From positions 4,681,501 through 4,745,500 of the forward strand of contig NZ_CP099760.1 of the NCBI RefSeq assembly GCF_040760005.1: a DNA stretch of 64,000 bases. Direction: 5' to 3'. Source of the stretch: Pseudomonas sp. stari2. GTDB lineage: Bacteria; Pseudomonadota; Gammaproteobacteria; Pseudomonadales; Pseudomonadaceae. Every line of letters starts with the position of its first letter. The stretch's first letter is position 1. Under the pieces are notes generated by a model, which saw nothing but the letters and a program-made list of their open reading frames with translations, did not search any database and was not told the DNA's origin. This document shows positions 29,498 through 61,925 of the stretch, piece by piece. Both the position numbers and the translations under genes were made by a program.

Positions 29498-30041
29498 GGG
29501 TGACCCTTGGGGAAACATGAATGAGGGCGAAGAGGACGCGCGGACTCTTCGTGAAATGGCAATCAACTGCCCCATCAATGAGGAGACAGACGTTATCCGG
29601 GGAATAGCTTTGGGTCGCAGTTTATTGAATCGGTGAACGGTTGACCACTTTCGCTGAACAGCCGTCTTGTAGCACTGGCTCACGATAGTCCGGACTCACG
29701 CCGAACAATGATTTGCAGCACAAGATATCGAATAGCCAGAAAATAAACTTTAGCGCGCACTGATTCTTGACGATTCGCAATCCAGTACGACACATCACGT
29801 TCAAATCAGTAGTGCCCGTCACGCCAGCGAAAATGCGGTTCCCACCTCCACAACACAAACAAATCGCCTAAATCCGCTTCGCTGGTTGGAGCTGGCTCAG
29901 GGTACGGATAGAATCCGTCCGGAAAAGTGGCACGAGCCCATGCCTGCAAGAGCCAACTGCATGCTCGGCACATAATATTATCGGCGAACACCGCCAAAAA
30001 TACATATATCGCACGTCTTTTGCTTCGAAATGGAGAGCCCC
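29498..30041. other. Divergent intergenic region without a gene
   Basis: About 540 relatively AT-rich bases separate the divergent wbpV-like and aminotransferase genes and must hold both promoters. A short reverse open frame (29622-29858) has no ribosome site and no recognisable sequence, so I do not call it. A 6-base dyad, ACGGAT with ATCCGT, lies near 29900. No JUMPstart/ops element was found. Confidence 0.5.
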
Positions 30042-31139
30042 ATGCAGCAGATCAATAACCTTGCAGCGAAGATAGAAAAGTTTCAATCGCAAATCAGTTC
30101 TTCGGTGCAACGCGTAATTGCCAGCGGCTGGGTGATTTTGGGACCGGAAGTCAAACGCTTTGAAACCGCCTTTGCGCAATATTTGAATGCCGGTCATTGC
30201 ATCACTGTCGCCAACGGTACCGATGCCATCGAACTGGCTCTCAAGGCTCTGGGCGTCGGCAAAGGCGATCAAGTGGCAACCGTCGCCAATGCCGGGATGT
30301 ACACCACTACGTCGGTTCTGGCCATCGGCGCCACCCCGATTTTCATGGACGTCGACCTGCAGACTCACGTAGTGACCCTCGAAGGCGTCAAGCAGGCGAT
30401 TGAAGCCGGTGCCAAAGCCGTGGTCGTCACCCACCTGTACGGCCTGGCAACCCCACAAATCAAGGCCATCGCCGAATACTGCAGCGAGCGGCAGATTCCA
30501 TTGCTCGAGGATTGCGCCCAGGCCCACGGCGCCGAGCGCGACGGACAGCGAGTCGGCACTTTTGGCGACGCTGCGAGCTTCAGCTTCTACCCAACCAAAA
30601 ACCTTGGCGCACTGGGTGACGGCGGCGCCGTCGTCACCAACTCCGCGACCATTGCCCAGCGCGTAGCGCAATTGCGCCAATACGGCTGGTCCTCGAAATA
30701 TTGTGTCGAACTGGACGGCGCCCGCAACAGTCGCCTGGATGAAATGCAGGCAGCGATCCTGTCCGAGTTTCTGCCGCACCTCGACGAGAGTAACGCACGC
30801 CGTCGTGAAATCGCGTCGCGCTACAGAAACGAAATCCATCACGCGGATGTAAATCACGCCGAAGATCAAGGCACCGCCTCGGTCGCCCACCTGTACGTGA
30901 TCAAGTCGGCGAAGCGCGATGCGCTGCAAGTGCACTTGCGCGAAGCACAGATCGCGTCCGACGTTCATTACCCGATCCCGGACTACAAGCAACCAGTCTT
31001 TGGCAAGCAGTTCGCCGACTACAGCCTGGCCAACACCGAACAACTGGCCTCGCTGATCCTGACCCTGCCTTGCTACCCGGAAATGACCGACGAAGAGGTC
31101 AGCACCGTGATCACCGCCGTCAACGGATGGGTGGCATGA
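30042..31139 (+). CDS. dTDP-sugar 3-aminotransferase (FdtB/QdtB-like, DegT family)
   Basis: A 365-residue PLP-dependent sugar aminotransferase. The predicted PLP lysine is Lys186 in FSFYPTKNLGALGDGG, and the family motifs ANGTDAIELAL and EDCAQAHGAE are present. The NLGALGDGG context and the ketoisomerase/acetyltransferase gene two positions downstream point to a 3-aminotransferase acting on a dTDP-3-keto-6-deoxyhexose, giving dTDP-Fuc3N or dTDP-Qui3N. GGAG lies 6 bases before the ATG at 30042; an ATG at 30030 is in frame. First gene of a forward operon. Confidence 0.85.
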   Translation: MQQINNLAAKIEKFQSQISSSVQRVIASGWVILGPEVKRFETAFAQYLNAGHCITVANGTDAIELALKALGVGKGDQVATVANAGMYTTTSVLAIGATPIFMDVDLQTHVVTLEGVKQAIEAGAKAVVVTHLYGLATPQIKAIAEYCSERQIPLLEDCAQAHGAERDGQRVGTFGDAASFSFYPTKNLGALGDGGAVVTNSATIAQRVAQLRQYGWSSKYCVELDGARNSRLDEMQAAILSEFLPHLDESNARRREIASRYRNEIHHADVNHAEDQGTASVAHLYVIKSAKRDALQVHLREAQIASDVHYPIPDYKQPVFGKQFADYSLANTEQLASLILTLPCYPEMTDEEVSTVITAVNGWVA

Positions 31140-32080
31140 GATATTCCGTTATCGTCCCGGTTTACAAGAACGCTGACTCGATACCCCGGCTGATCCAGGC
31201 CCTGACAGACATGAACGACACACTCGAGAATCAGCTCGAGGTGGTTTTTGTGGTGGATGGCAGTCCCGACGATTCGTTTGCCCTGCTCAAGAATGCACTG
31301 GGCACCATGCGCTTTTCCGCGCAATTGTTGGCTCATTCGCGCAACTTCGGCTCGTTTCCGGCCATTCGCACTGGCCTGATGGCTGCCAGGGGCGAGTATT
31401 TCGGCGTGATGGCAGCAGACCTTCAGGAGCCGCCAGAGCTTTTGATCAGCTTCTTCAAGTCGCTTTCCAATGACGAATGCGACGTCGCCATCGGCACCCG
31501 CAACGCTCGCCAGGATCCGCTTTCCAGCCGCATGGCCTCCTCGATCTTCTGGGGTCTGTATCGCCGACTGGTCGTGCATGACATGCCCAAGGGCGGCGTG
31601 GATATTTTCGGTTGCAACAAGGCGTTCCGTGAACAACTGCTACAGCTGAACGAGTCCCGCTCGTCGCTCATCGCACTGATCTTCTGGCTGGGCTTCCGTC
31701 GCAAGTTCATCGAGTACGAGCGTCAGACCCGCCTCGAAGGCAAATCGGCATGGACCTTCAAGAAAAAGCTCGAATACATGATGGACAGTGTGTTCGCCTT
31801 CACCGACTACCCAATCAGACTGCTGACCCGAATGGGCGCGATGGGCTCGCTCATCTCCCTGTTCATTGGCGTAATGGTCATCATCGCGCGACTGTCGGGA
31901 GCCATTGAGGTACCGGGTTACGCCGCAACCATGCTGGTGGTGCTGCTGCTGGGGACATTGAATCTGCTCGGGATTGGCCTCGTGGGCACTTATGCCTGGC
32001 GAGCCTACGAAAACAGCAAGCAGCGACCGCTGGCCATTGTCTGCATGAAACTCGACAACAAGGAAATTCCAAATGAGTGA
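31136..32080 (+). CDS. GtrB-like polyprenyl-phosphate glycosyltransferase (GT2)
   Basis: 314 residues. An N-terminal GT-A domain ([27 protein letters not shown]) resembles the DPM1/GtrB/ArnC group, and two C-terminal transmembrane helices (about 230-300) follow. Such enzymes move a sugar from a nucleotide to undecaprenyl phosphate on the cytoplasmic face. Its ATG overlaps the aminotransferase stop by 4 bases, so the donor is probably the sugar made by that operon. A GtrA gene lies two positions downstream. The sugar is inferred from context. Confidence 0.85.
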
Positions 32081-33029
32081 GCCGTTCATCCACGCCAGCG
32101 CCGATGTCAAAAGCAAGAACATCGGCAAGAACACGCGCATCTGGCAGTACGTGGTGGTCTTCCAGGATGCGGTGATTGGTGAAGACGTCAATGTCTGCTC
32201 GCACTCACTGATCGAAAACGACGTGGTGATCGGCGACCGCACGACCATCAAGTCGGGTGTCTATGTGTGGGACGGCCTAAGGATCGGCTCCGACGTATTT
32301 ATAGGCCCGAACGCGACGTTCACCAACGACAAATTCCCACGCTCGAAGGTCTATCCAGAGTCGTTCTCTCAGACGGTGATCCAGGACGGCGCTTCCATCG
32401 GCGGCGGAGCAGTCATCCTGCCAGGCATCACTATCGGCACGGGTGCGATGGTCGGCGCAGGTGCCGTGGTCACAAAATCTGTACCGCCATACGCCATCGT
32501 CACGGGATCCCCTGCCCGGATCACCGGCTACGTCGAGAACTCCGCCTTCAGCGATGCAGCCAAAAGCCCTGCGGCGAAACCCGAAGAGCAGTCGGATGCT
32601 GTGGTTCGGATCGGTGTGGGCGATGTCACCACCCACCGATTCAAATACATCGCCGACATGCGTGGTGACTTGTCGGTCGGCGAGTTCCACAAGGAAATCC
32701 CCTTCACACCAAAACGCTACTTCCTGGTATTCAACGTTCCGAGCCAGAAGACTCGTGGTGAGCATGCTCATCACAAATGCCACCAGTTCCTGATTTGTGT
32801 GAAAGGCAGCTGTGCGGTGGTGGTCGATGATGGTACCAATCGGGCAGAAGTTACTCTGGATGCGCCAAACAAAGGGATTTACCTGCCACCACTAACGTGG
32901 GGCATCCAATACAAATACTCTGAAGACGCAGTGTTGCTGGTGTTCACTTCCGATTACTACGAAGCTGACGACTATATTCGAGATTATTCGGAATTCGTCA
33001 AACTCACCTCGAAAAAATCACCATTGTGA
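32073..33029 (+). CDS. Bifunctional sugar N-acetyltransferase / 3,4-ketoisomerase
   Basis: A 318-residue fusion. Residues 1-155 form a left-handed beta-helix acetyltransferase (hexapeptide repeats, [19 protein letters not shown]). Residues 180-318 form a WxcM/FdtA cupin with the catalytic-type motif [14 protein letters not shown] (229-242) and the tail [13 protein letters not shown]. It resembles the Xanthomonas WxcM and Shewanella FdtD arrangement. Together with the aminotransferase it would convert dTDP-4-keto-6-deoxyglucose to dTDP-Fuc3NAc or dTDP-Qui3NAc; which isomer cannot be read from sequence alone. It overlaps the previous gene by 8 bases. Confidence 0.88.
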
Positions 33030-33427
33030 TAGCACTTAAAGACAATAACCAAGCTCGTCGCTGGATTCAGTTTCTGATCGGCGGCGGGCTCAACACCGGC
33101 CTGACCTACTGCCTCTACTTGATGTTGAGTTACTGGATCGACTATCAGATAGCCTATGCAATCGCCTATGCGGCCGGGATTGTTTTTGCCTACTTCTTCA
33201 ACTCGAAAGTTGTTTTCAAGGTTCAACAGTCATGGATTGGCATGGCGATCTATCCGAGCATCTACCTGGTGCAGTATCTGCTCGGCGCATTAATACTCAA
33301 CCTCCTGGTCGAGCACCTGCATTTACACAAAGCGATCGCTCCGATTCTGGTGATTTTGCTTCTGCTGCCATGCAGCTATCTATTGAATAAATTTGTCCTG
33401 AAGGTCACACATAAAACAAAACCATAA
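33026..33427 (+). CDS. GtrA family flippase-like membrane protein
   Basis: 133 residues with four transmembrane helices and the GtrA motifs [17 protein letters not shown] and [11 protein letters not shown]. GtrA proteins are thought to flip undecaprenyl-phosphate-linked sugars across the inner membrane. The start is a GTG overlapping the previous stop by 4 bases (GTGA), which implies coupled translation with the fusion enzyme. Together with the GtrB-like gene it makes two of the three parts of a Gtr-type periplasmic glycosylation system. Confidence 0.88.
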
Positions 33428-33446
33428 CAGGACCAACGGGCACCAC

Positions 33447-35630
33447 ATGACTGCAATTTTCAATCAGGCGCCAACTTTGGCGCCAGCAACACTTCATGGA
33501 AAAAAACTGATCTTGCTCGCCCATCTGGGCCCAGCTCTGCTTACCGTATTTTTTATCTGGCTTCCGTTTGGCTTCGCCCTGACCGGATTGCTCGAAGAGT
33601 GGGGGGTTGTTGGGTTATTCAGCAGAGTCGGTGTGTTTTTTCTGACCGATGCCGCCAGTGCAATGCCGGCGCATGCCCTTCGACCGCTCACTATTCTTCC
33701 TCATGCAATTGCATACAGCCTCGACCCTAACTCGTTCAACTATTGGCATGTCTTACTGATCATTGCCTTGGTGATCAAGGGATGGGCTGCCAGTGTCATC
33801 ACCACCCGCATCACAGGCGCAATCAAATGGGGAATGCTGGCGAGCGTGCTGGTCATCGTTTTCCCCGCTGACACCATGCAACTGTCGTTCAGGTCCATCC
33901 ACATCAACTGGGCCCTCAGCCTTGTCTTGTTGGCCAGCGTCCTGCTGATACGGGCACTCGACGAAAGAAACAGAGTCAAGTCCTTAATTCTCAGTGCCCT
34001 TGCAAGCCTGATACTCGCTGCCAGCTGCGCGATGTACGAAGTAGCGCTACTGCTGGCGGCCATTCCAGCATTCGTGGTCTTCATACAAGTCGGCATCAAA
34101 GGCATTGCTGCGCATATCAAGCGGTTCTACTGTCAACACCTGATCTGGGCGGTCGGCCCGGCCGCGTATATCATCTATGTAATACACACTCTGCCGCTGG
34201 TACACAGTTATCAAAGCGCAGTGGTGGGTGATAGTGCACTAGCCTCTGTAAAAATGTACTTCCCCAAACTGTTCACCCTGGGTGTAAAACGAAGCGTTTT
34301 CGGCGGCTGGATTGATGCATTCAGAATCACCGGTTCTGAAATCGGCAGTTATTGGTATGTGACCGTCGCTACCGCGCTACTGCTTGCATTGATTGCATTT
34401 GCCGCCTGGAAATCAAAAGACACCCTCCTGGTCGAGACAGGTTCGAACTCACGCTGGACGTTGCCCGTGCGCATGATCGCGATCGGACTCGTCCTGATTT
34501 GCCTGGGCTATCTGCCGTTCATTTTCAATCCTGCGCACATGGCCGTCAGCCAGAGAACTTTTCTATATGCAGCTCCCGGAGCGACGATGATATTTATCGC
34601 ACTGCTCCTGTGCATTTACCGATATTCGAAAACAGCCACAGCCACGCTGTCTGCAATGCTGATTTTCACCGGACTGTCAGCACAGCTGTTTCAGTTCCAG
34701 CACTACATTGAAATTTCCAAAAGGCAACAGTCGATCCTCAACGACATCGCCCATAACTTTGACGGAAATGCAGTCGGTAAAACTCTGCTGATCCTTGACT
34801 ACTCCAATCAACTCAATCATGACTGGATGTTTTTGAACCCAGACCTGAGCGCCATCCTTTTCCATATATACGAAAAGCCGGCGGACACCATTGAAGTCTG
34901 CTATATGCCTAGCCACGAGTGGCAACAGACCGACCCGTTGCAGCGCAAAGGTACATGCGAGAAAACCGAAGAAGGATGGACACTCAACTATCCCGTGCCG
35001 TTTGACACTCCCCCACCACCGAGCAAGAAACTTTCCAATGCGGACGTTGTAACTGTCGAAGTTGGAAGGGGCGAAGCACCTGCTGCCAATGCCGAGCTGA
35101 ATGCATGGCGCAAGGAGCTGGAGTCCGAGTCATCTCCGGCAGGTGCCCGGCTGCGAGGCATCACTGAATCGCACCCCTGGTTTCAATTCTTCCAGTTCCG
35201 CCAACCGCCCCCTGATGAGTACTACTGGGACTTTGGCAGGTGGTGGAGCATGACTCCGCCAATCGCCGGGTCTGGCTGGAGGAACACGCAATGGGAAACA
35301 AGACGCTTTGTTCATACAGCTTCGGCGTGGAAAAACGCACCGCAGTCATCTCTCGTTTTCGATTTGATACCTGCATCTGCCCCTTATGAGATCAATGGTT
35401 TTTTCAAAAGCTTCGCCAATAAACAGTTACGCGACAAGATGCAGGTAGAAGTCAACGGAATCCATATTCCGCTGCAGTGGATCCAGGACGGCAGATTCAG
35501 TGGAAGCGTGCCGGCCGACACACTCAAGCCAGGTCGAAACTCCATCGAATTCATTTCAGATGTGGACGCCGGAAATGGCGGCGTTTCCGCCGAACTGGAC
35601 TGGATAAACGTTACTAGGCAAATCAGATGA
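33447..35630 (+). CDS. Large membrane protein of unknown function, paralog A (GtrC-like by context)
   Basis: 727 residues with about 10-11 transmembrane helices (roughly 20-445) followed by a soluble C-terminal domain (about 450-727). I do not recognise a named family. Strong motifs shared with the next gene include PADTMQLSFRS, HINWALSL, HALRPLTILP and SQRTFL. The C-terminal part is beta-rich with a tryptophan motif (WDFGRWWSM), suggesting a carbohydrate-binding sandwich. By position after GtrB- and GtrA-like genes it may be the periplasmic transferase that puts the lipid-linked sugar on the polysaccharide; a Wzy-like role is an alternative. It lies 19 bases after gtrA. Confidence 0.8.
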   Translation: MTAIFNQAPTLAPATLHGKKLILLAHLGPALLTVFFIWLPFGFALTGLLEEWGVVGLFSRVGVFFLTDAASAMPAHALRPLTILPHAIAYSLDPNSFNYWHVLLIIALVIKGWAASVITTRITGAIKWGMLASVLVIVFPADTMQLSFRSIHINWALSLVLLASVLLIRALDERNRVKSLILSALASLILAASCAMYEVALLLAAIPAFVVFIQVGIKGIAAHIKRFYCQHLIWAVGPAAYIIYVIHTLPLVHSYQSAVVGDSALASVKMYFPKLFTLGVKRSVFGGWIDAFRITGSEIGSYWYVTVATALLLALIAFAAWKSKDTLLVETGSNSRWTLPVRMIAIGLVLICLGYLPFIFNPAHMAVSQRTFLYAAPGATMIFIALLLCIYRYSKTATATLSAMLIFTGLSAQLFQFQHYIEISKRQQSILNDIAHNFDGNAVGKTLLILDYSNQLNHDWMFLNPDLSAILFHIYEKPADTIEVCYMPSHEWQQTDPLQRKGTCEKTEEGWTLNYPVPFDTPPPPSKKLSNADVVTVEVGRGEAPAANAELNAWRKELESESSPAGARLRGITESHPWFQFFQFRQPPPDEYYWDFGRWWSMTPPIAGSGWRNTQWETRRFVHTASAWKNAPQSSLVFDLIPASAPYEINGFFKSFANKQLRDKMQVEVNGIHIPLQWIQDGRFSGSVPADTLKPGRNSIEFISDVDAGNGGVSAELDWINVTRQIR

Positions 35631-35762
35631 AAGCGCGATAAGTAACGTTGTACAGACGTCATGCTGCGACTGATCCAGCCTGCAAAATGACAAATATCGG
35701 ACGCTGCCTGTCAGGCCAGAACCCGATCAGGCACCAGAATTTATAAAGCCATGGAAAGATAA

Positions 35763-37967
35763 ATGAGCATCAGGTCATCCACAGCCCCATCCAGTACTCA
35801 CCCGGACGAAAACTCAGAGCCTGATGCCACTCCTGTGGCGGTAAAGCGCTGGCTCGCACACATTGCTCCCGCAGCCGTTATCATCTTGATACTTTGGCTG
35901 CCGTTCGGTTTCGCCATGACCGGGCTGATCGAGGAGTGGGGGATTTTAGGACTCTTCGTCAAAAACGGGATATTCTTCATCTCCGATACCTCCAGCCCGC
36001 TGCCGTTACACGCACTGAGACCACTGACGATCCTTCCTCAGGCCGTTGCTTTCTGGCTTGACAACAACTCGTTCTTTTTTTGGCATGTTCTGTTAATTCT
36101 TGCACTGCTGATAAAAGGCTCTTCCGTTAGCTACATCATCGAGAAACTGACGAGCAGTTCAAAACTCGGAATTATTGCATGTGCACTGGTCATCATTTAT
36201 CCAGCAGACACCATGCAACTTTCCTTCAGAAGCCTGCATATCAACTGGGCACTTAGCCTCACGCTATTGAGCAGTGCTGTTTTCCTGCACGCACTGTCAC
36301 TTAACCGAAAGTCCCATGCCCTAGTGCTAAGCATAGTGGCGAGTGCCCTGCTCTCCTCTGCCTGTTTCATGTATGAGGCTTCACTGCTGCTCGCCTGCAT
36401 TCCAGCTTTGCTGTTGTTTATCCGTGACGGCATGCTATCGGCGCTGATTCAAATCAAACAGAAACTGCTGGAGCACGCGATCTGGGTCGCCGGAGCCGTT
36501 GTTTACGTTGCATACGCCCTCCACACCGCACCACTTGTAAACAGCTATCAAACAAGTGTTGTCGGGTCCAATCTGCTGGCAACTCTGAAAATCACCTACC
36601 CAAAACTCTTCAGCATCGGGCTACTGCGCAGCACACTTGGCGGCTGGTTTGATGCCGTACGAATTACCAAACATGAATTTTCCAGCTACGGATATGTAAT
36701 CGCCGCAAGCGTTTTTTTCTTTTTGATTATCGCGGCGATACTTATATCTAATAGCAAGCACAACAAAGCTGCCACCAAACAAAGCCTTTCCTTTAATGGC
36801 AGGCTCGCAATTGCAGGCGTGACACTCATTCTCCTTGGCTACTTTCCATTTCTGATTTCCCCTAGCCATCTCTTGGTTAGTCAAAGAACATTTTTATTTG
36901 CAACACCTGGCGCCGCACTTCTGCTGTTGGCAATCATCAGCACCGGATACCGCCTCTCCAAATCGATAACCAATATAGTTTTTGGTTTCTTTTTCATTAT
37001 CGGAGTGTCATTCCAGCTTTACCAATTCCACCACTACATTGAAATCTCCCGCAAGCAGGCGACGGTACTCAATGAGATCACCGAAAAATTTGATGGCAAT
37101 ATCGAGAACAAGACCCTTCTGATTCTCGACCATGGGAATCAGCTGAACTACATATGGATGTTCATCAACGAGAGCCTGACCGGTTCTTTGTCCTTCTTGT
37201 ATAACAAACCGATATCAGACATCCAGGTTTGCCATATGCCCAGCAAGCACTGGCAGCACTCGGATTCGCTGGGGCGTAAAGGTCGGTGCGTAGAGAACGC
37301 TCAGAACTGGACGTTCGAATACCCGACCCCGGTCAGCGGGCCGGGCTTTCCAGCCTCGGAGCAACCCGCAAGCCTGGTAATCCCCAAGACCTCAATCGTC
37401 ACAGTGGAGATTGGCAACGAGAGTGAAGACAGTCAGAGCGGTCGTACAACTCCAGAGAGTCGAGGCGTTGTAGCGGAACGTCGAGATGCCATTGAAAGTG
37501 CACGCAACGCACAGACACGCTTCGTTCGCTTTGAAGACGCTGTTGTGAGTGACGAATACGACTGGACGTTTGGCAAATGGTGGAGCATGGAGTTGCCCAC
37601 TCACGGTACTGGCTGGCGAGAAGCCGAGTGGGATATAGGCAGTTTTTATCACCATCCATCGGCCTGGAAAATTGATAAGCACGCCAACCTTGCTTTCGAA
37701 TTCAAACCCGGAAGCGACATAGCTTATGAACTCAAAGGCCGGTTTACTCTATTCGCGGAACCAGACGCTCAAAGCAATATGATCATCAAACTCAACGGCA
37801 AGACCTTACCTGTCCAATGGAGTGAAAACGGAGAGTTCGAGGCAAAAATCGATAACGGCGTACTAAAAAACGGCTCCAACAACCTGGAGTTAGACTCGCC
37901 GACCAACGATACCTACTATGGACTGTCCGCCCGACTGGAAGGCATCCATATAAAAAGGCAACAATAA
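35763..37967 (+). CDS. Large membrane protein of unknown function, paralog B
   Basis: 734 residues, collinear with the preceding gene from about residue 30 to the end. It shares the same ~10-11 transmembrane helices, PADTMQLSFRS, HINWALSL, HALRPLTILP, SQRTFL and the C-terminal WTFGKWWSM motif. The two clearly arose by tandem duplication and have since diverged, most in the N-terminus and the linker near residue 545. Base composition is visibly more AT-rich than the flanking core genes. GGAAAG precedes the ATG after a 132-base gap. Possible roles: a second linkage specificity or a partner subunit. Confidence 0.8.
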   Translation: MSIRSSTAPSSTHPDENSEPDATPVAVKRWLAHIAPAAVIILILWLPFGFAMTGLIEEWGILGLFVKNGIFFISDTSSPLPLHALRPLTILPQAVAFWLDNNSFFFWHVLLILALLIKGSSVSYIIEKLTSSSKLGIIACALVIIYPADTMQLSFRSLHINWALSLTLLSSAVFLHALSLNRKSHALVLSIVASALLSSACFMYEASLLLACIPALLLFIRDGMLSALIQIKQKLLEHAIWVAGAVVYVAYALHTAPLVNSYQTSVVGSNLLATLKITYPKLFSIGLLRSTLGGWFDAVRITKHEFSSYGYVIAASVFFFLIIAAILISNSKHNKAATKQSLSFNGRLAIAGVTLILLGYFPFLISPSHLLVSQRTFLFATPGAALLLLAIISTGYRLSKSITNIVFGFFFIIGVSFQLYQFHHYIEISRKQATVLNEITEKFDGNIENKTLLILDHGNQLNYIWMFINESLTGSLSFLYNKPISDIQVCHMPSKHWQHSDSLGRKGRCVENAQNWTFEYPTPVSGPGFPASEQPASLVIPKTSIVTVEIGNESEDSQSGRTTPESRGVVAERRDAIESARNAQTRFVRFEDAVVSDEYDWTFGKWWSMELPTHGTGWREAEWDIGSFYHHPSAWKIDKHANLAFEFKPGSDIAYELKGRFTLFAEPDAQSNMIIKLNGKTLPVQWSENGEFEAKIDNGVLKNGSNNLELDSPTNDTYYGLSARLEGIHIKRQQ

Positions 37968-38067: not shown

Positions 38068-40104
38068 TCAGCGATCTGTGACACCCAACTCCCGAGCGAT
38101 CGCTCGCGCGACGAAATCCGAGCCGTGACGGGTCAAGTGAACGATGTCGAGATAAAAAGCATCACCACTCGATGCCGTCTCTCTCATGAGACAACCCTCC
38201 TCGTTACACATTTTCTGAGCCACTGAAATGTAAAGGGCGCCTGACTCCTGCGCCAAAATTCTCAAATCCCTTTCCGCAGCGTCGGTTCCAGTGTCCAGCT
38301 CACCATTCACCTCCTGCTCCTGACCCATTCCATACTTCTCGTAGTCCAACCGCTCTGATGGAATACGATGCAACGGATCATGACTCCACAAGTTGAAGGC
38401 AATACGAGAAGGCGTGTCTTTCCAGGCAGGCGTAGGCCCCAGGAGAATCACTCTACGACTCCCGGCATCCTGAATCTGTTTGACGGTCGCTGACAAAAGC
38501 GTCTTGTCATATCGCGGCCACATGCCAGCAAGAATCACAGTATCAGGCACCAGCTCGCGAACCTTATCGATGGTCCACTGATTGTTTGATTTGCACGCCG
38601 GATTCTTTCCCTGAAATCCGACTATCGGCGGGCATGACGAAGATGTGAATTGTGCCAGCCGGAATTGTCCGGAGCGATCCGCAAGCCCACGCAACCCCGA
38701 ATATATGGCGGCGGCATCGGAATCTCCCCACAACACCCACAACGGCTTGTCACCCTTGTCTACGCACTCAGGAGCGTACTGGGTCGCTTCTTGCCCGACA
38801 TCCATGAAACAGACGAGGTTACGAAGACCTGCGCGGTAGCCGTCGAGATCATATTCGGTCGCACGCTGGATGATTTGCGGGTACCGGGAAGGAAAGCCGC
38901 CAGATTTGAAAACGATGCCTGCCAATACACCCGCCACGCACATCAATGCACAAAGAACGAGGACACTGAAACGCTTACTGGAGCCCGAACGAAATGGACG
39001 CTCGATATAAACGTATGTAAGAGTCGCGAGAAAAGCACTGCCAGCCAGAAGACCTAAACGCACCAGCCAAGGCACACCTTCCGGATAGGCACTCCTGGCA
39101 AACGTCAGCAATGGCCAATGCCATAGATAAAGCGGGAAGCTGATCAGCCCGATAAACGTCATCACACGGTTGCTCAGCAGGGCTCGATTCATCCAGGCAC
39201 CAGGGCCAGCCACAATAATGAGTGCGGCACCAATAACCGGAAAAAGTGCCCACTTGCCGGGAAAAGGTAATGTGCTATTGATGCGGAAAACTGCATAGAC
39301 AATGAACAGCATTCCAATAACTGAAATTACAGTTCGCGTCTGCTGCCGATCAAATACCTGTGCAATCTTTTTCATTGATCGGCCGTACCTGTCAGCTCTC
39401 AAACACGAGCCCGACCCGAAGCAAGCCAACACCGCACCAACGACAAGCTCCCACCCTCGAGAAAGCGGCGAATAGAAAGTTGCGGTTGCGTGCTCATGCA
39501 CTCCGATGATGTTCAGTACAAAGGATAAGACTCCAACAATGGCAACAATTGGCAACAGCGGAATTCGCATTCGCCAGACAGCCCAAAACAAGAGCGGCCA
39601 TATGACATAGAACTGCTCTTCTATCCCCAGTGACCACAGATGAAGCAGAGGCTTGAGCTCTGATGCCTTGTCAAAATAATCGGCCTCACCCCACAAAATG
39701 AAGTTTGAGACAAAAGTGGCACCACCAAGAACATGTTTTGCCAGCAGCGTCAGGTCATCGGCAAGCATCGTGCTCCAGCCGAAAGCCAAACATACGGCCA
39801 ATACGGTAAATAGCGCGGGAAAAATGCGTCGGATGCGCCGGGAATAAAAGTCAGCAACGCTGAACGTACCCTGATCCAGCGTCGTGATGATGACCCTGGA
39901 TATCAGGTAACCGGAGATGACAAAGAATATGTCCACCCCTACAAAACCGCCCCGCAACAGCGCAGGGAAGGCGTGAAAAAACAATACAGACAAAACAGCG
40001 ATGGCCCGAAGCCCATCGATATCGGGCCGGTATCCAATATGACGGGTTTGATTACGCGAAACGGGAGAGACTACGGATTGGTTTTGAGTTGCGCTCATCG
40101 TCAT
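38068..40104 (-). CDS. OafA-type acyltransferase with C-terminal SGNH domain
   Basis: 678 residues. The N-terminal acyltransferase-3 membrane domain (about 20-400, about 10-11 helices) carries RPDIDGLRAIAVLSVLFFHA and SYLISRVI-type motifs. The C-terminal periplasmic SGNH domain (about 440-678) has the serine motif LWGDSDAAAIY and a DIVHLTRHG segment bearing the Asp-x-x-His dyad. Such proteins O-acylate (usually acetylate) lipopolysaccharide sugars outside the membrane. The usual GDSH block reads GDSD here. The start could also be the ATG at 40098; neither has a strong ribosome site. Confidence 0.87.
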   Translation of the reverse strand: MTMSATQNQSVVSPVSRNQTRHIGYRPDIDGLRAIAVLSVLFFHAFPALLRGGFVGVDIFFVISGYLISRVIITTLDQGTFSVADFYSRRIRRIFPALFTVLAVCLAFGWSTMLADDLTLLAKHVLGGATFVSNFILWGEADYFDKASELKPLLHLWSLGIEEQFYVIWPLLFWAVWRMRIPLLPIVAIVGVLSFVLNIIGVHEHATATFYSPLSRGWELVVGAVLACFGSGSCLRADRYGRSMKKIAQVFDRQQTRTVISVIGMLFIVYAVFRINSTLPFPGKWALFPVIGAALIIVAGPGAWMNRALLSNRVMTFIGLISFPLYLWHWPLLTFARSAYPEGVPWLVRLGLLAGSAFLATLTYVYIERPFRSGSSKRFSVLVLCALMCVAGVLAGIVFKSGGFPSRYPQIIQRATEYDLDGYRAGLRNLVCFMDVGQEATQYAPECVDKGDKPLWVLWGDSDAAAIYSGLRGLADRSGQFRLAQFTSSSCPPIVGFQGKNPACKSNNQWTIDKVRELVPDTVILAGMWPRYDKTLLSATVKQIQDAGSRRVILLGPTPAWKDTPSRIAFNLWSHDPLHRIPSERLDYEKYGMGQEQEVNGELDTGTDAAERDLRILAQESGALYISVAQKMCNEEGCLMRETASSGDAFYLDIVHLTRHGSDFVARAIARELGVTDR

Positions 40105-40237: not shown

Positions 40238-41356
40238 TCAGACTGCCTTGCAAACCTTCCGGTACAAGTCGGCATAGGCCTTGGCCATCTCATCGGCTGA
40301 AAACACATCCCTGTAACGACACAGAGCACGTTGCCCCATCTCGCGAGCCAACTCATCGTTGTTCCAGAGTGTATTCATTGCGCCGGCCAGCGCCGTGGAG
40401 TCGCGCGGCGGGACTACGAGGCCGGTTTCATTCGCAAGATTGATAAACGTGGTACCGGAACCGATTTCACAGGAAATAAGCGGTTTTCCGTACATCGCCG
40501 CCTCGAGCAACGAAATACCGAACGACTCCGAGCGAAGATGCGACGGGAATACAAATCCATGGCATAACGTCAGCAACGCGGCCTTGTCGTCATCACCCAA
40601 TCCGCCCAGAAAGTGCACATTGGTCAGGCCGAGGCGTGAAGCTTGCTCCTTCAGTTCGCTCTCCTGGTGCCCTCCTCCCAGAAGAACGACCGGCAACCCG
40701 GTAATCCGCGCCGCCTCAAGCAGATAGTCGAGGCCCTTGTAATAACGCAGGGCACCGACAAACAAAAAGAATTTCTCGCCAACCCTGACTCGCCAATCCG
40801 CGAGTTTTTGCGGCGTTGCGACTGGATAGGTTGTCGCGTCCAACCCATACGGGATGATTTCGACTTTATCGCGGAACCGGGTCAGCACCGGGCTGCTTTG
40901 CGCATAGTTCGGTGAAGAGGCAACGATGCAATCCACGCTGGACAGAAACCGGCTCATCAACGGCTCATATAGTTTGAGCAGCGTCTTTTGCTTGACGATA
41001 TCCGAGTGATAGCTGACCACCGAAGGCTTGCCATGCCGACTGGCAAAATGAAGCAGATCCATATAGGGCCAAGGAAAGTGGTAGTGCACCACATCCGCTT
41101 CTTTGGCCAGCTCGGAAAAATCCTTGAAGGCCGACAACGAAAAGCCAGTCGAAGCCACATGTAGATCAAGTTTCGAGCGGTGAGTCAGGTGATTGCCTAC
41201 CGTTTCGTTTCGCGCCGAGCCTCGCTCGCTGAGATAAAGAACCTGCGAAGAAAAACCGTGGCTGGCACCACCTTGGGCAATCTGAAAAATAACCTGTTCG
41301 ATACCACCCATGGTTTCCGGGTAATAGGTTTTGAAAAAGTGCAGGACCTTGATCAT
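40238..41356 (-). CDS. GT4 glycosyltransferase, possibly WbpZ-like
   Basis: A 372-residue GT-B enzyme. It opens with KVLHFFKTYYPETMGGIEQV and has the GT4 E-x7-E region (FGISLLEAAMYGKPLIS). It is the last gene of a reverse operon gmd-rmd-GT-GT, overlapping the previous gene by 4 bases. In the P. aeruginosa common-antigen cluster, three GT4 enzymes (WbpX, WbpY, WbpZ) polymerise D-rhamnose; length and neighbourhood make this a WbpZ-like candidate, but linkage and donor are not proven. Start at 41356 with AAAGGAAC upstream. Confidence 0.82.
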   Translation of the reverse strand: MIKVLHFFKTYYPETMGGIEQVIFQIAQGGASHGFSSQVLYLSERGSARNETVGNHLTHRSKLDLHVASTGFSLSAFKDFSELAKEADVVHYHFPWPYMDLLHFASRHGKPSVVSYHSDIVKQKTLLKLYEPLMSRFLSSVDCIVASSPNYAQSSPVLTRFRDKVEIIPYGLDATTYPVATPQKLADWRVRVGEKFFLFVGALRYYKGLDYLLEAARITGLPVVLLGGGHQESELKEQASRLGLTNVHFLGGLGDDDKAALLTLCHGFVFPSHLRSESFGISLLEAAMYGKPLISCEIGSGTTFINLANETGLVVPPRDSTALAGAMNTLWNNDELAREMGQRALCRYRDVFSADEMAKAYADLYRKVCKAV

Positions 41357-42498
41357 GTTCCTTTGATTACCCTCTGGTAGACCTGCATGGTTTCGACGGC
41401 ACAGCGCTCCCACGAGAAGCCCTGCGCATGCTGCTGTCCCTTGATGACCGCAATCTCGCGCCAGGCATCATCGGTCAGCCCTCGCTCGATCAGACGGGTC
41501 AGTTCGTCGACATCCATCGGCGCGCACATCAGCGCCGCCTCACCCGCGACCTCCGGAAGCGACGAACTGTTGGAACACACCACCGGCACCCCTGAACTCA
41601 TTGCCTCGAGCACCGGCAAACCAAACCCCTCGTAAAGAGACGGAAAGGCAAACAGACGAGCACCGGCAAAAAGCAGCGGCAGATCTGCGCTCGGCACGAA
41701 CCCGAGATAATGCGCCCAGCCTTCACGTCGCGCGCTCTCGAGCTTCCGATGAATCAAATCGCTGCGCCATCCCTGGTAACCGGTGAGAATCAGCGGCCAG
41801 CGCGTTCGCAAGGCCAGCGGCAGTCGCTCATAGGCATCAAGGAGCGTCTCGATGTTCTTGCGCGGCTCGATCGTACCGACAAACAGCGTATAACCACCTC
41901 GCTCCAGCCCATGCCGATCGAGCGTAGCCCTGAGCTCGTCATGCGACCGGGGGTAAAACTCTGGAGAACTTGCCAGCGGCACGGTATGTATCCGCTCAAT
42001 TGGCCATGAAAAATAGCTGGCCAACTCCTGGCGGGTAAACTCCGAATCAGTGATCAGCGCGTCAGCTCGCACCAATGTGGTTTTGAGCTCTTTTTGCAGG
42101 TAACGGACAAGTTGCGGCGCATGACAGTGGGCCCAGGTGAAGGGCGAAAGATCATGAAACGTAGCTACGCTACGCCCGGAAAAGGGAGGAAGGTAATAAT
42201 TGGGACTGTGATACAGAAAGTCGCCGTGCCCCTTGAGAGCAGCCTTTCGCAGCATCGGCATCAACAATCGATAGGCTTCTACAGCTAGAAAATTCTTCTG
42301 TACCGCACGCTTCAAACCATAGCCACTACCGGATTCGTTCGCAGCAGTGGGCAATTCGGGCAAGAAACGTCGACCGGCAAAAAACTGCAGGTCTGTAATT
42401 TCGGGACTTTGCTGAAGTCTCAGCGCAAGTTCGTAGGTATAGCGACCGATACCGGTCAGTGGAAAGCGGATCGGCTCAACAGAGAGAACTAGCTTCAT
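41353..42498 (-). CDS. GT4 glycosyltransferase, possibly WbpY-like
   Basis: 381 residues, GT-B fold. It has an N-terminal acceptor-domain motif (RFPLTGIGRYTYELALRL), the donor-domain start LFVGTIEPRKNIETLLDAY and the signature FPSLYEGFGLPVLEAMSSG. It starts immediately after the rmd stop codon (TAA then ATG), so it is co-transcribed with the GDP-D-rhamnose genes and most likely uses GDP-D-rhamnose. WbpY of the A-band polysaccharide is the nearest analogue I can name. The symbol is withheld because GT4 functions cannot be read from motifs. Confidence 0.84.
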   Translation of the reverse strand: MKLVLSVEPIRFPLTGIGRYTYELALRLQQSPEITDLQFFAGRRFLPELPTAANESGSGYGLKRAVQKNFLAVEAYRLLMPMLRKAALKGHGDFLYHSPNYYLPPFSGRSVATFHDLSPFTWAHCHAPQLVRYLQKELKTTLVRADALITDSEFTRQELASYFSWPIERIHTVPLASSPEFYPRSHDELRATLDRHGLERGGYTLFVGTIEPRKNIETLLDAYERLPLALRTRWPLILTGYQGWRSDLIHRKLESARREGWAHYLGFVPSADLPLLFAGARLFAFPSLYEGFGLPVLEAMSSGVPVVCSNSSSLPEVAGEAALMCAPMDVDELTRLIERGLTDDAWREIAVIKGQQHAQGFSWERCAVETMQVYQRVIKGT

Positions 42499-43395: not shown

Positions 43396-44815
<1,420 letters not shown>

Positions 44816-45616
44816 ATGCGCAATGGTTCTGTAAGTATCGCGCTGTCGGATATCGTCGCTGCGACAAAACGATACGCTCTGGTAGGGATGCTAGGCTGGC
44901 AAGACGTCCGGCAGCGCTATAGAAGGTCGGCACTGGGCCCATTCTGGCTGACGATCAGTATGGGCGTGATGATCGGGACCATCGGGATAGTGTTCGGCCA
45001 GATCTTCAACTCCCCCATGCACGAGTTCCTTCCGTTTCTCGCCATCGGCATGATTCTCTGGAGCTTCATGTCCTCGGTCATCACCGAGGGTTGTACCGGC
45101 TTCATCGCTGCCGAAGGCATCATCAAGCAATTGCCGATCCCTTTGTTCACCCACATTCTTCGCATGATCTGGCGCAACATCCTGATCCTGGGCCACAACA
45201 TCGTGATCTTCCCGCTGGTACTGCTTGCCGTCAGCAAGCCTCTGACCTGGCTGGCGTTCATCAGTATTCCCGGCCTTTTGCTGGCACTGCTGAACCTGAC
45301 GTGGATCGCCTTGCTGCTGGGCATCCTCTGCGCACGCTATCGTGACCTGCCTCAGATTGTCGGAAGCTTGTTGCAAGTAGTGTTCTACCTCACACCGATC
45401 ATGTGGATGCCGAGCTTGCTACCTCAAAGGGCCGGGCTTTACCTGCTTGACCTGAATCCGGTCTACCACATCATGTCGATCGTCCGCTCCCCACTGATCG
45501 GGCAGTTGCCAACCGCCACCAACTGGTGGGTTTCCCTGGGCATGGCCGCTGTCGGCTGGGTCGTTGCGCTCGTGGTCTACGGCCGTTACAAGCGCCGCAT
45601 CGCTTACTGGCTCTAA
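44816..45616 (+). CDS. wzm: O-antigen ABC transporter permease Wzm
   Basis: 266 residues with six predicted transmembrane helices and the ABC-2 polysaccharide-export signature (DVRQRYRRSALGPFWLTIS, TPIMWMPSLLP). Wzm forms the channel that exports a lipid-linked, already polymerised O-chain from cytoplasm to periplasm. The start is uncertain: the ATG at 44816 is chosen, but an in-frame TTG at 44792 would add eight residues, and neither has a good ribosome site. wzt follows 12 bases downstream. Confidence 0.9.
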   Translation: MRNGSVSIALSDIVAATKRYALVGMLGWQDVRQRYRRSALGPFWLTISMGVMIGTIGIVFGQIFNSPMHEFLPFLAIGMILWSFMSSVITEGCTGFIAAEGIIKQLPIPLFTHILRMIWRNILILGHNIVIFPLVLLAVSKPLTWLAFISIPGLLLALLNLTWIALLLGILCARYRDLPQIVGSLLQVVFYLTPIMWMPSLLPQRAGLYLLDLNPVYHIMSIVRSPLIGQLPTATNWWVSLGMAAVGWVVALVVYGRYKRRIAYWL

Positions 45617-45628
45617 GAAGAACTCCTA

Positions 45629-46372
45629 ATGTCGCTGATCGAATTCAAAAATGTTTGTGTGGATTTTCCGATCTACAACGCTAACGGCCGTTCCCTGAAG
45701 AAACGCCTGATTCAGGTTGCCACCGGTGGACAATTGGGCGCGGATCAACAGGGTCGCGTCATCGTCAGAGCGCTCGAAGACCTGACCTTCACCTTGCGTG
45801 ACGGTGACCGGGTCGGGCTGCTGGGCCATAACGGCGCCGGCAAGAGTACGCTGCTGCGCCTGCTCAGCAGTGTCTATGAGCCATCGTCGGGCACCGCTCG
45901 AATCGATGGAGAGATCGGTTCCCTGATCGACATTTCCCTGGGAACGGATCCCGAGGCTACCGGGCGGGAGAACATCTACCTGCGCGGCGGCATTTTGGGC
46001 ATGACCAAGGCACAGATCACCGAAAAGCTCGACGAGATCATTGAGTTTTCCGAACTGGGTGACTTTGTCGACATGCCTATCCGCACCTATTCCTCGGGCA
46101 TGCACCTGCGCCTGGCCTTCGCCGTCTCGACCACGATCAAACCGGAAATCCTGCTGATGGACGAATGGCTATCGGTGGGTGATGAAGGCTTCAAGCACAA
46201 GGCCGAGATCCGCATGAACGAGCTGGTGAAATCGACCAACATTCTGGTGATTGCCAGCCACTCCCGCGAACTGGTCATGCACACCTGTAATCGGGTGCTG
46301 TGGCTGGAGCACGGCAAGATAAAAATGGATGGAGACCCGACAACGGTCACCACTGCCTACTTTGGAGCTTGA
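45629..46372 (+). CDS. wzt: O-antigen ABC transporter ATPase Wzt, short form
   Basis: A 247-residue ABC ATPase. It has Walker A (GHNGAGKST), the signature YSSGMHLRLAFAVST and Walker B (ILLMDEWLSVGDEGF). It powers export through Wzm. It ends right after the nucleotide-binding domain and lacks the C-terminal carbohydrate-binding module found in Wzt proteins that recognise a chain-terminal cap, such as E. coli O9a and, as I recall, the ~420-residue P. aeruginosa Wzt. Export may therefore not need cap recognition. Confidence 0.92.
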   Translation: MSLIEFKNVCVDFPIYNANGRSLKKRLIQVATGGQLGADQQGRVIVRALEDLTFTLRDGDRVGLLGHNGAGKSTLLRLLSSVYEPSSGTARIDGEIGSLIDISLGTDPEATGRENIYLRGGILGMTKAQITEKLDEIIEFSELGDFVDMPIRTYSSGMHLRLAFAVSTTIKPEILLMDEWLSVGDEGFKHKAEIRMNELVKSTNILVIASHSRELVMHTCNRVLWLEHGKIKMDGDPTTVTTAYFGA

Positions 46373-46377
46373 AGCTA

Positions 46378-47703
46378 ATGAACAGCATTAAGCGCAATGG
46401 TGTGGAAATCGAAACGGCCTTTTCGATTGCGTCGAAGCGTTTGTTCGCGCGCGCAGTTTCCCATCCCGTCATCAGCGCGCCGACCGATGTCGAGATCGAT
46501 GTCGCCAGCAGTGCCAGTGATATCCCTCATGCAACCTCACCAGCCATGAGCCGGATGCTGCGCCATCACGTCAAGCAGACACTTCGGCGGATTGCCCAGA
46601 GCGTTTTTCGCGTCACCCGGCCTTTCACGCGTCCGGTGCTCTTCCGCCTGCGCACCTATTTGAATGCCACGATCCGCCAGGACATGCTGCAAGAGTTCGC
46701 CACTCTCCAACAGGCGTTCGCCAGCCTGCAGGAGCAACAGCGCGAACAAACCCAGCAAGTCATGCTGGAGCTTCAGCGACTGACCAACTCGACGAATGTC
46801 CAGGCTTCCCTGTCGCGAGAGCTTTTCGCCAGCCAGCTCCCGGTGGAAAAAGCCGGCCCGCAACTCGATCGAATCGAGCAATATGCATTGCTTGATGTCA
46901 ACCGCATCGCCATCAACTCCGGACCGGATGAAACACTGGTCAAAACTGCAGTCGGCTATATGCTCTGCGGCGCCAGGGATCACGCTCTGCTGGCCAACCT
47001 GATGGAAGCAGGAGAGCTTGAACCTGGAACGCGGATTCTGATCGAGCGCATTATCAAACCTGGGGATGTCTATATCGATGTCGGGGCCAATATCGGAATG
47101 CATTCGATAGCCGCTGCTCGAGCCATGTCGGGACAAGGCAGGATATTTGCTTTTGAGCCATTCGAGCCGACCCGAAAACTGCTGGAAAGAAACCTGTGGC
47201 TCAACGGTTTTTCATCCATCAGCGAAATCTCCCATTACGCACTTTCGGACAAAGCGGGCAGTCACAAACTGCACCTGGGCGCTACCAGCGGCCACCATTC
47301 ACTTTATGAGCTGGAACCCCCGACGTTTGCCCCGACGACTTCCGTGGACATCTCAACCATTACCCTGGACGAGTTTCTGCCGGAAGATCTGACTGCAAAG
47401 CTGCTGAAAATCGATGCGGAAGGCGCAGAAATCGATGTCATGAAAGGTGCGCGACGCCTGCTTGCCGCCAATCCAGAAATGCTTCTTATCGTTGAGCTTG
47501 GCCTCTCCCACCTGAAGCGAAATGCGATAAGCCTCGAGAACTGGCTCAAGAGTTTCACTGCTTCCGGACTGGTGTTCAGTGTTATCAATGAACGTACCGG
47601 CAACCTTGAAAGCTGGTCGGTCGAACAACTGTCGCACACAGACTCGGTCAATCTACTGTTTCACCGCCCGGAGTGGACTCATTCCGCAAGGAGTGACGCA
47701 TGA
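46378..47703 (+). CDS. FkbM family methyltransferase with N-terminal coiled coil
   Basis: 441 residues. About 1-90 is low in recognisable structure and basic. About 95-150 is a glutamine-rich predicted coiled coil (LQQAFASLQEQQREQTQQVM). The C-terminal FkbM SAM-dependent methyltransferase domain (about 225-400) has the SAM motif YIDVGANIGMHS and LKIDAEGAEIDVMKGA. It probably O-methylates a sugar of the polysaccharide; P. aeruginosa common antigen is known to carry 3-O-methyl rhamnose. The position directly after wzt fits a chain-terminal modifier. Start at 46378, 5 bases after the wzt stop. Confidence 0.85.
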   Translation: MNSIKRNGVEIETAFSIASKRLFARAVSHPVISAPTDVEIDVASSASDIPHATSPAMSRMLRHHVKQTLRRIAQSVFRVTRPFTRPVLFRLRTYLNATIRQDMLQEFATLQQAFASLQEQQREQTQQVMLELQRLTNSTNVQASLSRELFASQLPVEKAGPQLDRIEQYALLDVNRIAINSGPDETLVKTAVGYMLCGARDHALLANLMEAGELEPGTRILIERIIKPGDVYIDVGANIGMHSIAAARAMSGQGRIFAFEPFEPTRKLLERNLWLNGFSSISEISHYALSDKAGSHKLHLGATSGHHSLYELEPPTFAPTTSVDISTITLDEFLPEDLTAKLLKIDAEGAEIDVMKGARRLLAANPEMLLIVELGLSHLKRNAISLENWLKSFTASGLVFSVINERTGNLESWSVEQLSHTDSVNLLFHRPEWTHSARSDA

Positions 47704-48329: not shown

Positions 48330-48339
48330 AGGAAGAGAC

Positions 48340-61703: not shown

Positions 61704-61925
61704 GCGAAACCATACCCTTGAGGTGCTGACAGGGCTGCCAACCGAGCGCTGTCTAATCCATGAATGCAAAGCCTGAGTCGAGAGGCTTCTTTAAGAGCAA
61801 GCCTTCAGCGACATGCAAATATGCCACTGTCGAATAAGGGCGGCATTTTACAGCTAAATGAACGTTTTACTAATGGATATAGACAGGTAGCGGTGCAAAT
61901 TCACGACCTCCCACCCCCCATCATT

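What the first reader, a model, noticed from the sequence alone, without database searches (positions are those of the whole stretch)
31136..37967. Possible new Gtr-type periplasmic glycosylation system built around unknown ~730-residue membrane proteins
Seen in sequence: a GtrB-like GT2, a GtrA protein and two large polytopic proteins lie in one forward operon with the enzymes for a dTDP-3-acetamido sugar. Known: Gtr systems use GtrB (loads lipid), GtrA (flips) and a strain-specific GtrC-type membrane transferase; K. pneumoniae O2 strains use such modules on ABC-exported O-chains. Inference: the ~730-residue proteins are the transferases and decorate a Wzm/Wzt-exported backbone with Fuc3NAc or Qui3NAc. 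I cannot place these proteins in a named GtrC or GT family.
Basis: partly seen in the sequence, partly recalled or inferred. Interest (0 to 1): 0.8.

Follow-up and report, generated by a model that had tools for sequence, protein, structure and literature searches.

The report
O-antigen side-sugar module, paired membrane transferases
A Pseudomonas surface-sugar gene cluster holds a known type of three-part machine that probably adds 3-acetamido sugar branches to the lipopolysaccharide outside the cytoplasm, but its last step is probably done by an unstudied family of large membrane enzymes, present here as a divergent pair.

Summary
In detail: at 30030-37967, on one strand, lie a FdtB-type aminotransferase, a GtrB-type GT2, a WxcM acetyltransferase/ketoisomerase, GtrA and two paralogous polytopic proteins (727 and 734 aa, 44% identical), in an O-antigen locus with Gmd/Rmd, RmlA/RmlB and Wzm/Wzt. 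The Gtr-type reading is well supported by sequence: some relatives of the large proteins are fused to GtrA, nearly all carry a Glu just after the first hydrophobic segment, and three relatives just pass the Pfam GtrII cut-off (neither window protein does). 'New system' overstates it. The same cassette is Xanthomonas wxcK-N, where published wxcK and wxcN mutants lose FucNAc branches from a rhamnan, and GtrB-WxcM-GtrA occurs in at least 24 of 298 Pseudomonas genomes searched. What is unstudied is the transferase: no Pfam or NCBIfam model matched it, and it is not detectably related to WxcO, which stands in its place in Xanthomonas. Relatives also occur beside other GtrB enzymes. Two anciently split copies stand here (the only one of 7 Pseudomonas genomes with two), perhaps serving two acceptor sites.

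The parts
30030..31139 (+). FdtB/WxcK-type sugar aminotransferase (proposed dTDP-3-keto-6-deoxyhexose 3-aminotransferase)
   Evidence: PF01041 344 bits; PDB matches include QdtB 3frk, E 4.6e-73; 51-54% identical to the Xanthomonas gene at the same place in 7 of 7 regions
31136..32080 (+). GtrB-type GT2 with two C-terminal hydrophobic segments; proposed to make undecaprenyl-phosphate-linked Fuc3NAc (WxcL counterpart)
   Evidence: PF00535; best PDB match sll0501, 5ekp, E 7.1e-43 (that sll0501 is GtrB is recalled); hydrophobic segments 239-257 and 266-284
32073..33029 (+). WxcM-type bifunctional N-acetyltransferase / 3,4-ketoisomerase
   Evidence: PF05523 and Hexapep; PDB 4mzu WxcM-like protein, E 2.7e-126 over residues 6-311
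33026..33427 (+). GtrA flippase; the only PF04138 match (E<=0.001) in the genome
   Evidence: PF04138 75 bits; one match in the whole genome
33447..35630 (+). GTC1, 727 aa: N-terminal polytopic part, C-terminal soluble part; proposed periplasmic GT-C-type transferase
   Evidence: At least 146 homologous clusters; Glu50 in 141 of the 141 rows with a letter there; GtrA-fused relatives
35763..37967 (+). GTC2, 734 aa: paralogue of GTC1 that keeps all 27 conserved residues I compared
   Evidence: 44% identity to GTC1; residue map; clade of its own, 100/100 support
38068..40104 (-). Acyl_transf_3 plus SGNH O-acyltransferase (OafA type), likely a separate O-chain modification
   Evidence: PF01757 and PF19040
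40238..42498 (-). two GT4 glycosyltransferases, presumably of the O-chain (40238-41413 and 41353-42498)
   Evidence: PF00534
42499..44426 (-). Rmd-like reductase and Gmd: GDP-D-rhamnose route
   Evidence: PF16363/PF01370; the Rmd/Gmd naming is by homology and pairing
44792..46372 (+). Wzm (44792-45616) and Wzt (45629-46372), ABC exporter of the O-chain
   Evidence: PF01061 and PF00005
58850..61769 (-). RmlA (58850-59815), an SDR that is probably RmlD (59737-60633, inferred) and RmlB (60630-61769), which make the dTDP-4-keto-6-deoxyglucose precursor
   Evidence: TIGR01181 514.9 bits and TIGR01207 519.7 bits, both over cut-off, at these places; a second copy of each lies elsewhere in the genome

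Best explanation
A three-component (Gtr-type) O-antigen branching module. RmlA and RmlB make dTDP-4-keto-6-deoxyglucose; WxcM (isomerase half), FdtB and WxcM (acetyltransferase half) turn it into dTDP-3-acetamido-3,6-dideoxyhexose, most likely Fuc3NAc. GtrB loads the sugar onto undecaprenyl phosphate, GtrA flips it, and the two large membrane proteins (GT-C type, with a C-terminal periplasmic domain that may hold the acceptor chain) transfer it to a rhamnose-containing chain exported by Wzm/Wzt. The two copies most likely serve different acceptor positions. Shown here: gene content, order, homology, GtrA fusion, conservation and an old split of the two copies. Inferred: enzyme activity, fold, topology, acceptor, linkage and division of labour.
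For: Gene content and order. dTDP precursor route in the window. GtrA fused to the N-terminus of 6 of the 120 listed homologues. GtrII PF14264 just over its 30-bit cut-off in 3 relatives (30.7-31.8 bits) and at E<=0.1 in 7 of 64, against 0 of 4 shuffled or reversed control stretches. Glu50 in 141 of 141 and Glu51 in 136 of 141 rows, soon after the first hydrophobic segment; in Pseudomonas donghuensis GtrII the E47A change abolished its role in killing C. elegans, and Glu40 is named critical in S. flexneri Gtr[type] (PMC8509367, passages). All 7 of 298 Pseudomonas genomes in which this family was found also hold WxcM, which 42 of 298 hold (Fisher p 7e-7, not corrected for kinship). The same cassette is Xanthomonas wxcK-N, where wxcK and wxcN mutants lose FucNAc branches (PMC4878081, abstract and passages).
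Against: No PDB relative by profile. Neither window protein matches PF14264, nor do P0025 and P0037 or P0048, although P0048 bears a precomputed mark; comparison with the GtrII-type proteins beside the same cassette in other Pseudomonas is negative (hhalign 1.4%, E 0.036, 3 rows). In Xanthomonas the third part is WxcO, not this family; the wxcN mutant may be polar and one passage speaks of FucNAc traces. Only 8 and 11 hydrophobic segments were found, so the topology is rough. Of 34 genomic loci, 14 show no WxcM; of the 20 that do, GtrA was detected in 14 and FdtB in 18. Of the 7 Pseudomonas genomes only the window's own has two copies (which scored 3 candidates per genome), so a pair is not needed in general.
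Confidence: 0.8

Rival explanations
1. The two large proteins are transferases, but only one uses Fuc3NAc on the O-chain; the other extends the branch or decorates another acceptor (core, capsule, protein).
For: The copies form separate, fully supported clades, and 5 of the 7 Pseudomonas genomes with the family have one intact copy beside the same cassette, so one copy suffices for something.
Against: All 27 compared conserved residues are kept in both; the tandem pair lies in the same O-chain locus; GtrA is single in the genome, so a second GtrA-carried donor is less likely.
Confidence: 0.3
2. The donated sugar is Qui3NAc (gluco) rather than Fuc3NAc (galacto).
For: The ketoisomerase half also matches QdtA structures at 85-94 bits, and the aminotransferase matches QdtB.
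Against: The ketoisomerase half is nearest to 4zu4/4mzu (about 205 bits) and then 2pa7 (121 bits); that these belong to Fuc3NAc pathways is recalled. Xanthomonas WxcM, 55-59% identical, serves FucNAc branches (PMC4878081). But 5tpv, named a TDP-fucose-3,4-ketoisomerase, scores below QdtA, so scores alone do not decide.
Confidence: 0.25
3. The large proteins are not transferases but a polymerase, ligase or sugar translocase of the O-chain.
For: WxcO, which holds the same place in Xanthomonas, and some of its relatives are annotated 'sugar translocase' (annotation only).
Against: A flippase (GtrA) and an exporter (Wzm/Wzt) are already present; GtrA fusions and GtrII similarity fit a transferase; no polymerase, ligase or transporter match.
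Confidence: 0.07

Closest known systems
Xanthomonas campestris wxcK-wxcL-wxcM-wxcN-wxcO (O-antigen region 3)
   Same: Same order of aminotransferase, GT2, WxcM, GtrA and a ~750-aa membrane protein, next to Rmd/Gmd; needed for FucNAc branches on a rhamnan (PMC4878081, abstract and passages; PMC12573098, passages).
   Different: WxcO (750-753 aa) is not detectably related to the window's proteins: no HMM match at E<=10 in the seven regions, E 17 with filters off; hhalign 13.5% probability, E 0.0021, over 80 columns of the C-terminal domain only. The window has two transferase copies.
Shigella GtrA-GtrB-Gtr(type) and Pseudomonas donghuensis GtrA/B/II
   Same: Conserved GtrA and GtrB with a variable polytopic transferase; critical Glu near the N-terminus (PMC8509367, passages; PMC3259042, abstract).
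   Different: The donor here is built by a dedicated dTDP-sugar cassette in the same operon; the window proteins do not match the GtrII Pfam model.
GT136 pentofuranose system, Citrobacter youngae ORF12 (PMC11127046)
   Same: GT-C transferase with a C-terminal carbohydrate-binding domain that modifies a polymerised O-chain from a polyprenyl-phosphate donor (abstract, section 9 and part of 12 read).
   Different: That system uses a PPPRS and a MATE flippase instead of GtrB and GtrA; no sequence link was tested.
Klebsiella pneumoniae GmlABC (O2 galactan)
   Different: Adds galactose to galactan (recalled).

Membership tests
Three-component Gtr-type periplasmic glycosylation | GtrB-type polyprenyl-phosphate GT2 | tested here: met
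   sll0501 as best PDB match, recalled as GtrB; two C-terminal hydrophobic segments
Three-component Gtr-type periplasmic glycosylation | GtrA flippase in the same unit | tested here: met
Three-component Gtr-type periplasmic glycosylation | Third polytopic protein linked to GtrA/GtrB | tested here: met
   Adjacent; GtrA fused to 6 of 120 listed relatives
Three-component Gtr-type periplasmic glycosylation | Sugar transfer in the periplasm from an undecaprenyl-phosphate donor | not testable with these tools
   Needs biochemistry
Xanthomonas wxcK-O module | wxcK, L, M, N homologues in the same order | tested here: met
   7 of 35 Xanthomonas genomes hold WxcM at E<=1e-60; FdtB and GtrB called in 7 of 7 regions, WxcM and GtrA each in 6 of 7, the missing ones hidden by the ORF picker
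Xanthomonas wxcK-O module | WxcO homologue as third component | tested here: not met
   No HMM match; hhalign not significant
Pfam Glucos_trans_II (GtrII, PF14264) | Score over the curated cut-off | tested here: inconclusive
   Not met by either window protein; met narrowly by 3 relatives, P0031, P0040, P0046
GT-C superfamily | Conserved acidic residue in the first extracytoplasmic loop | tested here: met
   E50 141/141, E51 136/141, soon after the first hydrophobic segment, residues 21-39; which side of the membrane the loop lies on is inferred, and the motif rule is recalled
GT-C superfamily | GT-C fold | not testable with these tools
   Structure job failed, tool switched off; no PDB relative by sequence profile
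GT136 three-component system | PPPRS donor synthase and MATE flippase | tested here: not met
   Genes at 31136-33427 are GT2, WxcM and GtrA instead

The most novel reading that the evidence does not exclude
The large proteins found a new GT-C family with a C-terminal chain-binding domain, in which one shared pool of undecaprenyl-phosphate-Fuc3NAc is used by two anciently split, tandem transferases that place the sugar at two different acceptor positions of one ABC-exported chain, and whose members have repeatedly changed donor-sugar cassettes.
Probability: 0.45. Interest if true: 0.55.

Novelty: new variant of a known kind. Interest (0 to 1): 0.42.

Why it matters
It gives a testable identity to an unnamed family of at least 146 protein clusters, with members in Pseudomonas, Legionellaceae, Burkholderiales, Xanthomonadaceae and others. 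It also suggests that one donor cassette is served by at least four kinds of transferase (this family, WxcO, and the GtrII-type and DUF2142/PMT_2-type proteins near it in other Pseudomonas, whose role is inferred from position). That is the modular logic by which O-antigens, and so phage receptors, diversify: phage adsorption in Xanthomonas hortorum depends on genes for this kind of branch (PMC12573098, passages).

Tried and rejected
WxcO homology: not supported by HMM or by two profile comparisons; only the C-terminal domains aligned, weakly. Homology to the GtrII-type proteins beside the cassette in other Pseudomonas: not found by hhalign (only 3 rows on that side). P. fluorescens fuzY operon as the same system: the passages read (from the search) gave no GtrA or WxcM link; dropped. 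Phage or plasmid carriage: no relative in viral contigs (pattern-limited), plasmids or phages (GTC1 only). A second search with the profile did not widen the family: again 146 clusters among 8000 scored candidates. Whether XCC0613 of X. campestris ATCC 33913, a 730-aa protein in the place of WxcO (PMC2238763, passages), belongs to this family could not be tested, since no named sequence was on hand. The listings of literature searches showed no paper on these two proteins; one search returned off-topic papers; the library holds open-licence papers only.
Full report
What is there. The window lies in a 6.31-Mb single-contig genome whose nearest named relatives are Pseudomonas. On the forward strand at 30030-37967 lie a FdtB-type aminotransferase, a GtrB-type GT2, a WxcM-type bifunctional enzyme, GtrA and two large polytopic proteins, GTC1 (727 aa) and GTC2 (734 aa). 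Spacing is -4, -8, -4, +19 and +132 bases. Around them: an Acyl_transf_3-SGNH acyltransferase, two GT4 enzymes, Rmd-like and Gmd (reverse), Wzm and Wzt (forward). RmlA and RmlB, needed for the dTDP-4-keto-6-deoxyglucose precursor, are in the same window over their family cut-offs; the genome has a second copy of each.

The donor cassette is known. WxcM is nearest to the solved WxcM-like protein 4mzu (E 2.7e-126), and GtrB to sll0501 (recalled as the GtrB of known structure). Of 35 genomes of the genus Xanthomonas, 7 hold WxcM at E<=1e-60. In the seven regions read, the order FdtB-GtrB-WxcM-GtrA-(750 to 753 aa protein)-Rmd-Gmd recurs; the ORF picker missed WxcM in one region and GtrA in another, where frames on the other strand overlap. 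This is the published wxcK-L-M-N-O region. In X. campestris B100 the O-antigen is a rhamnan with FucNAc at every second rhamnose; the abstract reports no FucNAc in wxcK and wxcN mutants, one passage speaks of traces in wxcN, and the authors allow for polar effects (PMC4878081, abstract and passages). wxcN is described there as a small membrane protein; that it is the GtrA found here is by position. PMC2238763 gives WxcO as a 750-aa membrane protein (passages). In X. hortorum a wxcO insertion gives phage resistance with almost no adsorption, and the branch sugar is written Fuc3NAc (PMC12573098, passages). A reference title in PMC10181079 records 3-acetamido-3,6-dideoxy-D-galactose side chains in a P. 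syringae O-polysaccharide.

The cassette in Pseudomonas. WxcM at E<=1e-60 is in 42 of 298 Pseudomonas genomes. 30 of the 42 became loci; 27 of these are near-full-length matches (L077-L103). GtrB and GtrA lie beside WxcM in 24 of the 27 (not in L093, L096, L102), and FdtB was also seen in 23 of these 24 (not in L091); L103 looks interrupted. Seven carry this transferase family; they are all 7 of the 298 genomes in which the family was found, one of them (G034) apparently broken, and only the window's genome has two copies (which scored 3 candidates per genome and so may miss some). Fisher p is 7e-7 against all 42 and 2e-8 against the 27, without correction for kinship. In a sample of 369 genomes of the class, only 2, the window's own included, have the family. 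I fetched regions for the other 20 near-full-length cases and scanned nine membrane proteins from them: three, of 719-722 aa, match GtrII PF14264 (E 4.5e-27 to 5.9e-36), three match DUF2142 or PMT_2, and three match nothing; a further one is 82% identical to a PMT_2 protein. Some lie next to the cassette, others a gene or a strand away, and the remaining regions are unresolved. So one donor cassette appears to be used with several transferase kinds; the pairing is inferred from position.

The large proteins. Neither matches a Pfam model at E<=0.05 or an NCBIfam model at E<=0.1, nor a PDB sequence by profile at E<=1. Two searches each gave 146 clusters among 8000 scored candidates. Signs of a Gtr-type transferase: GtrA fused at the N-terminus in 6 of 120 listed homologues; PF14264 just over its cut-off in three relatives (30.7-31.8 bits against 30) and at E<=0.1 in 7 of 64 scanned, with none in four shuffled or reversed control stretches; Glu50 in 141 of 141 and Glu51 in 136 of 141 rows with a letter there, in a 143-row alignment (2 window proteins, 119 homologues, 22 of the 34 genomic loci). 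Its place soon after the first hydrophobic segment resembles that of the Glu named critical in S. flexneri Gtr(type) and P. donghuensis GtrII (PMC8509367, passages). Against: the window proteins do not match PF14264, nor do P0025 and P0037 or P0048 despite its precomputed mark; profile comparison with the GtrII-type proteins was negative; and no fold could be computed. The C-terminal part resembles carbohydrate-binding domains only weakly (PF14683 in 3 of 64 members, best E 0.036). GT136 ORF12 (PMC11127046, abstract, section 9 and part of 12) is a precedent for a GT-C enzyme with a C-terminal carbohydrate-binding domain.

WxcO is different. The family's HMM finds nothing in the seven WxcO regions at E<=10, and E 17 with filters off. 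Against an alignment of 29 WxcO relatives, hhalign gives 13.5% probability and a single-comparison E of 0.0021, only over 80 columns of the C-terminal domains; a shared C-terminal fold is not excluded. In Xanthomonas the 7 of 35 genomes with this family (one of them, G690, in two pieces) and the 7 of 35 with WxcM are disjoint.

Donor swapping and the pair. Of 34 genomic loci, 20 hold WxcM with a close GtrB and 14 hold no WxcM; of the 20, FdtB was detected in 18 and GtrA in 14, the six without being the Legionellaceae L009, L010, L011, L015, L019 and the Bdellovibrio-like L031. In 8 of the 14 a different GtrB (27-28% identical to the window's) lies upstream of the transferase. On a 40-row tree the label needs 6 changes, at least 5 forced by well-supported branches; shuffled labels need 11.8 on average, so the label is clustered but has changed several times. 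Caveats: the tool warned that long branches meet (L029 with L030, L031 with L034), which bears on two of the changes; labels were set by hand per locus, so the second copy in L014, which has its own GtrB, counts as cassette-bearing; matches under 500 residues were dropped, L034's second copy among them. GTC1 and GTC2 fall in two clades, each 100/100 (20 and 14 rows of 49); all members that bear a source name with an organism are Pseudomonas, many bear none. One further pair is visible by locus tags, EVS84_00700 and EVS84_00705 of P. koreensis, one in each clade. So the duplication is old. All 27 conserved residues that I chose to compare are kept in both; identity is 46% in residues 1-430, 51% in 431-520, 17% in 521-580 and 37% in 581-727. 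I read this as two acceptor specificities, which is inference; five of the seven Pseudomonas genomes have one intact copy only. Tandem copies also occur in L009 (three) and L010 (two).

Verdict. A Gtr-type Fuc3NAc branching module of known kind, with an unstudied transferase family as its third part.

Noticed in passing
46300-49443: FkbM/RfbT-like methyltransferase, PglD-like acetyltransferase and a second DegT aminotransferase follow Wzt. This could make an N-acylated perosamine and a methylated chain end; that naming is my inference.
   Followed up: no
38068-40104: An OafA-type acyltransferase with SGNH domain lies beside the module; 70-72% identical genes lie near the family in L006, L007 and L008, so O-acylation may travel with the branching module.
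   Followed up: partly
L014:2796-17824: One Burkholderiales locus appears to hold two Gtr-type modules, one with the WxcM cassette and one with a different GtrB (25% identical), each with its own member of this transferase family.
   Followed up: partly
G034:C1:5135707-5137851 (L042, L044, L045): The family member looks broken into several frames in this Pseudomonas genome; in Xanthomonas G690 the match also comes in two pieces. Phase variation, decay or sequencing error were not told apart.
   Followed up: no
L009:5738-12112: Three tandem copies of the transferase follow one WxcM gene in a Tatlockia (Legionellaceae) metagenome genome, with no GtrA detected.
   Followed up: partly
L016:5838-9904 and L023:5778-9890: The family occurs with a different GtrB; in L016 there are also two SDR enzymes and a nucleotidyltransferase, possibly a CDP-sugar donor. 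Inference only; L023 was not scanned against Pfam.
   Followed up: partly
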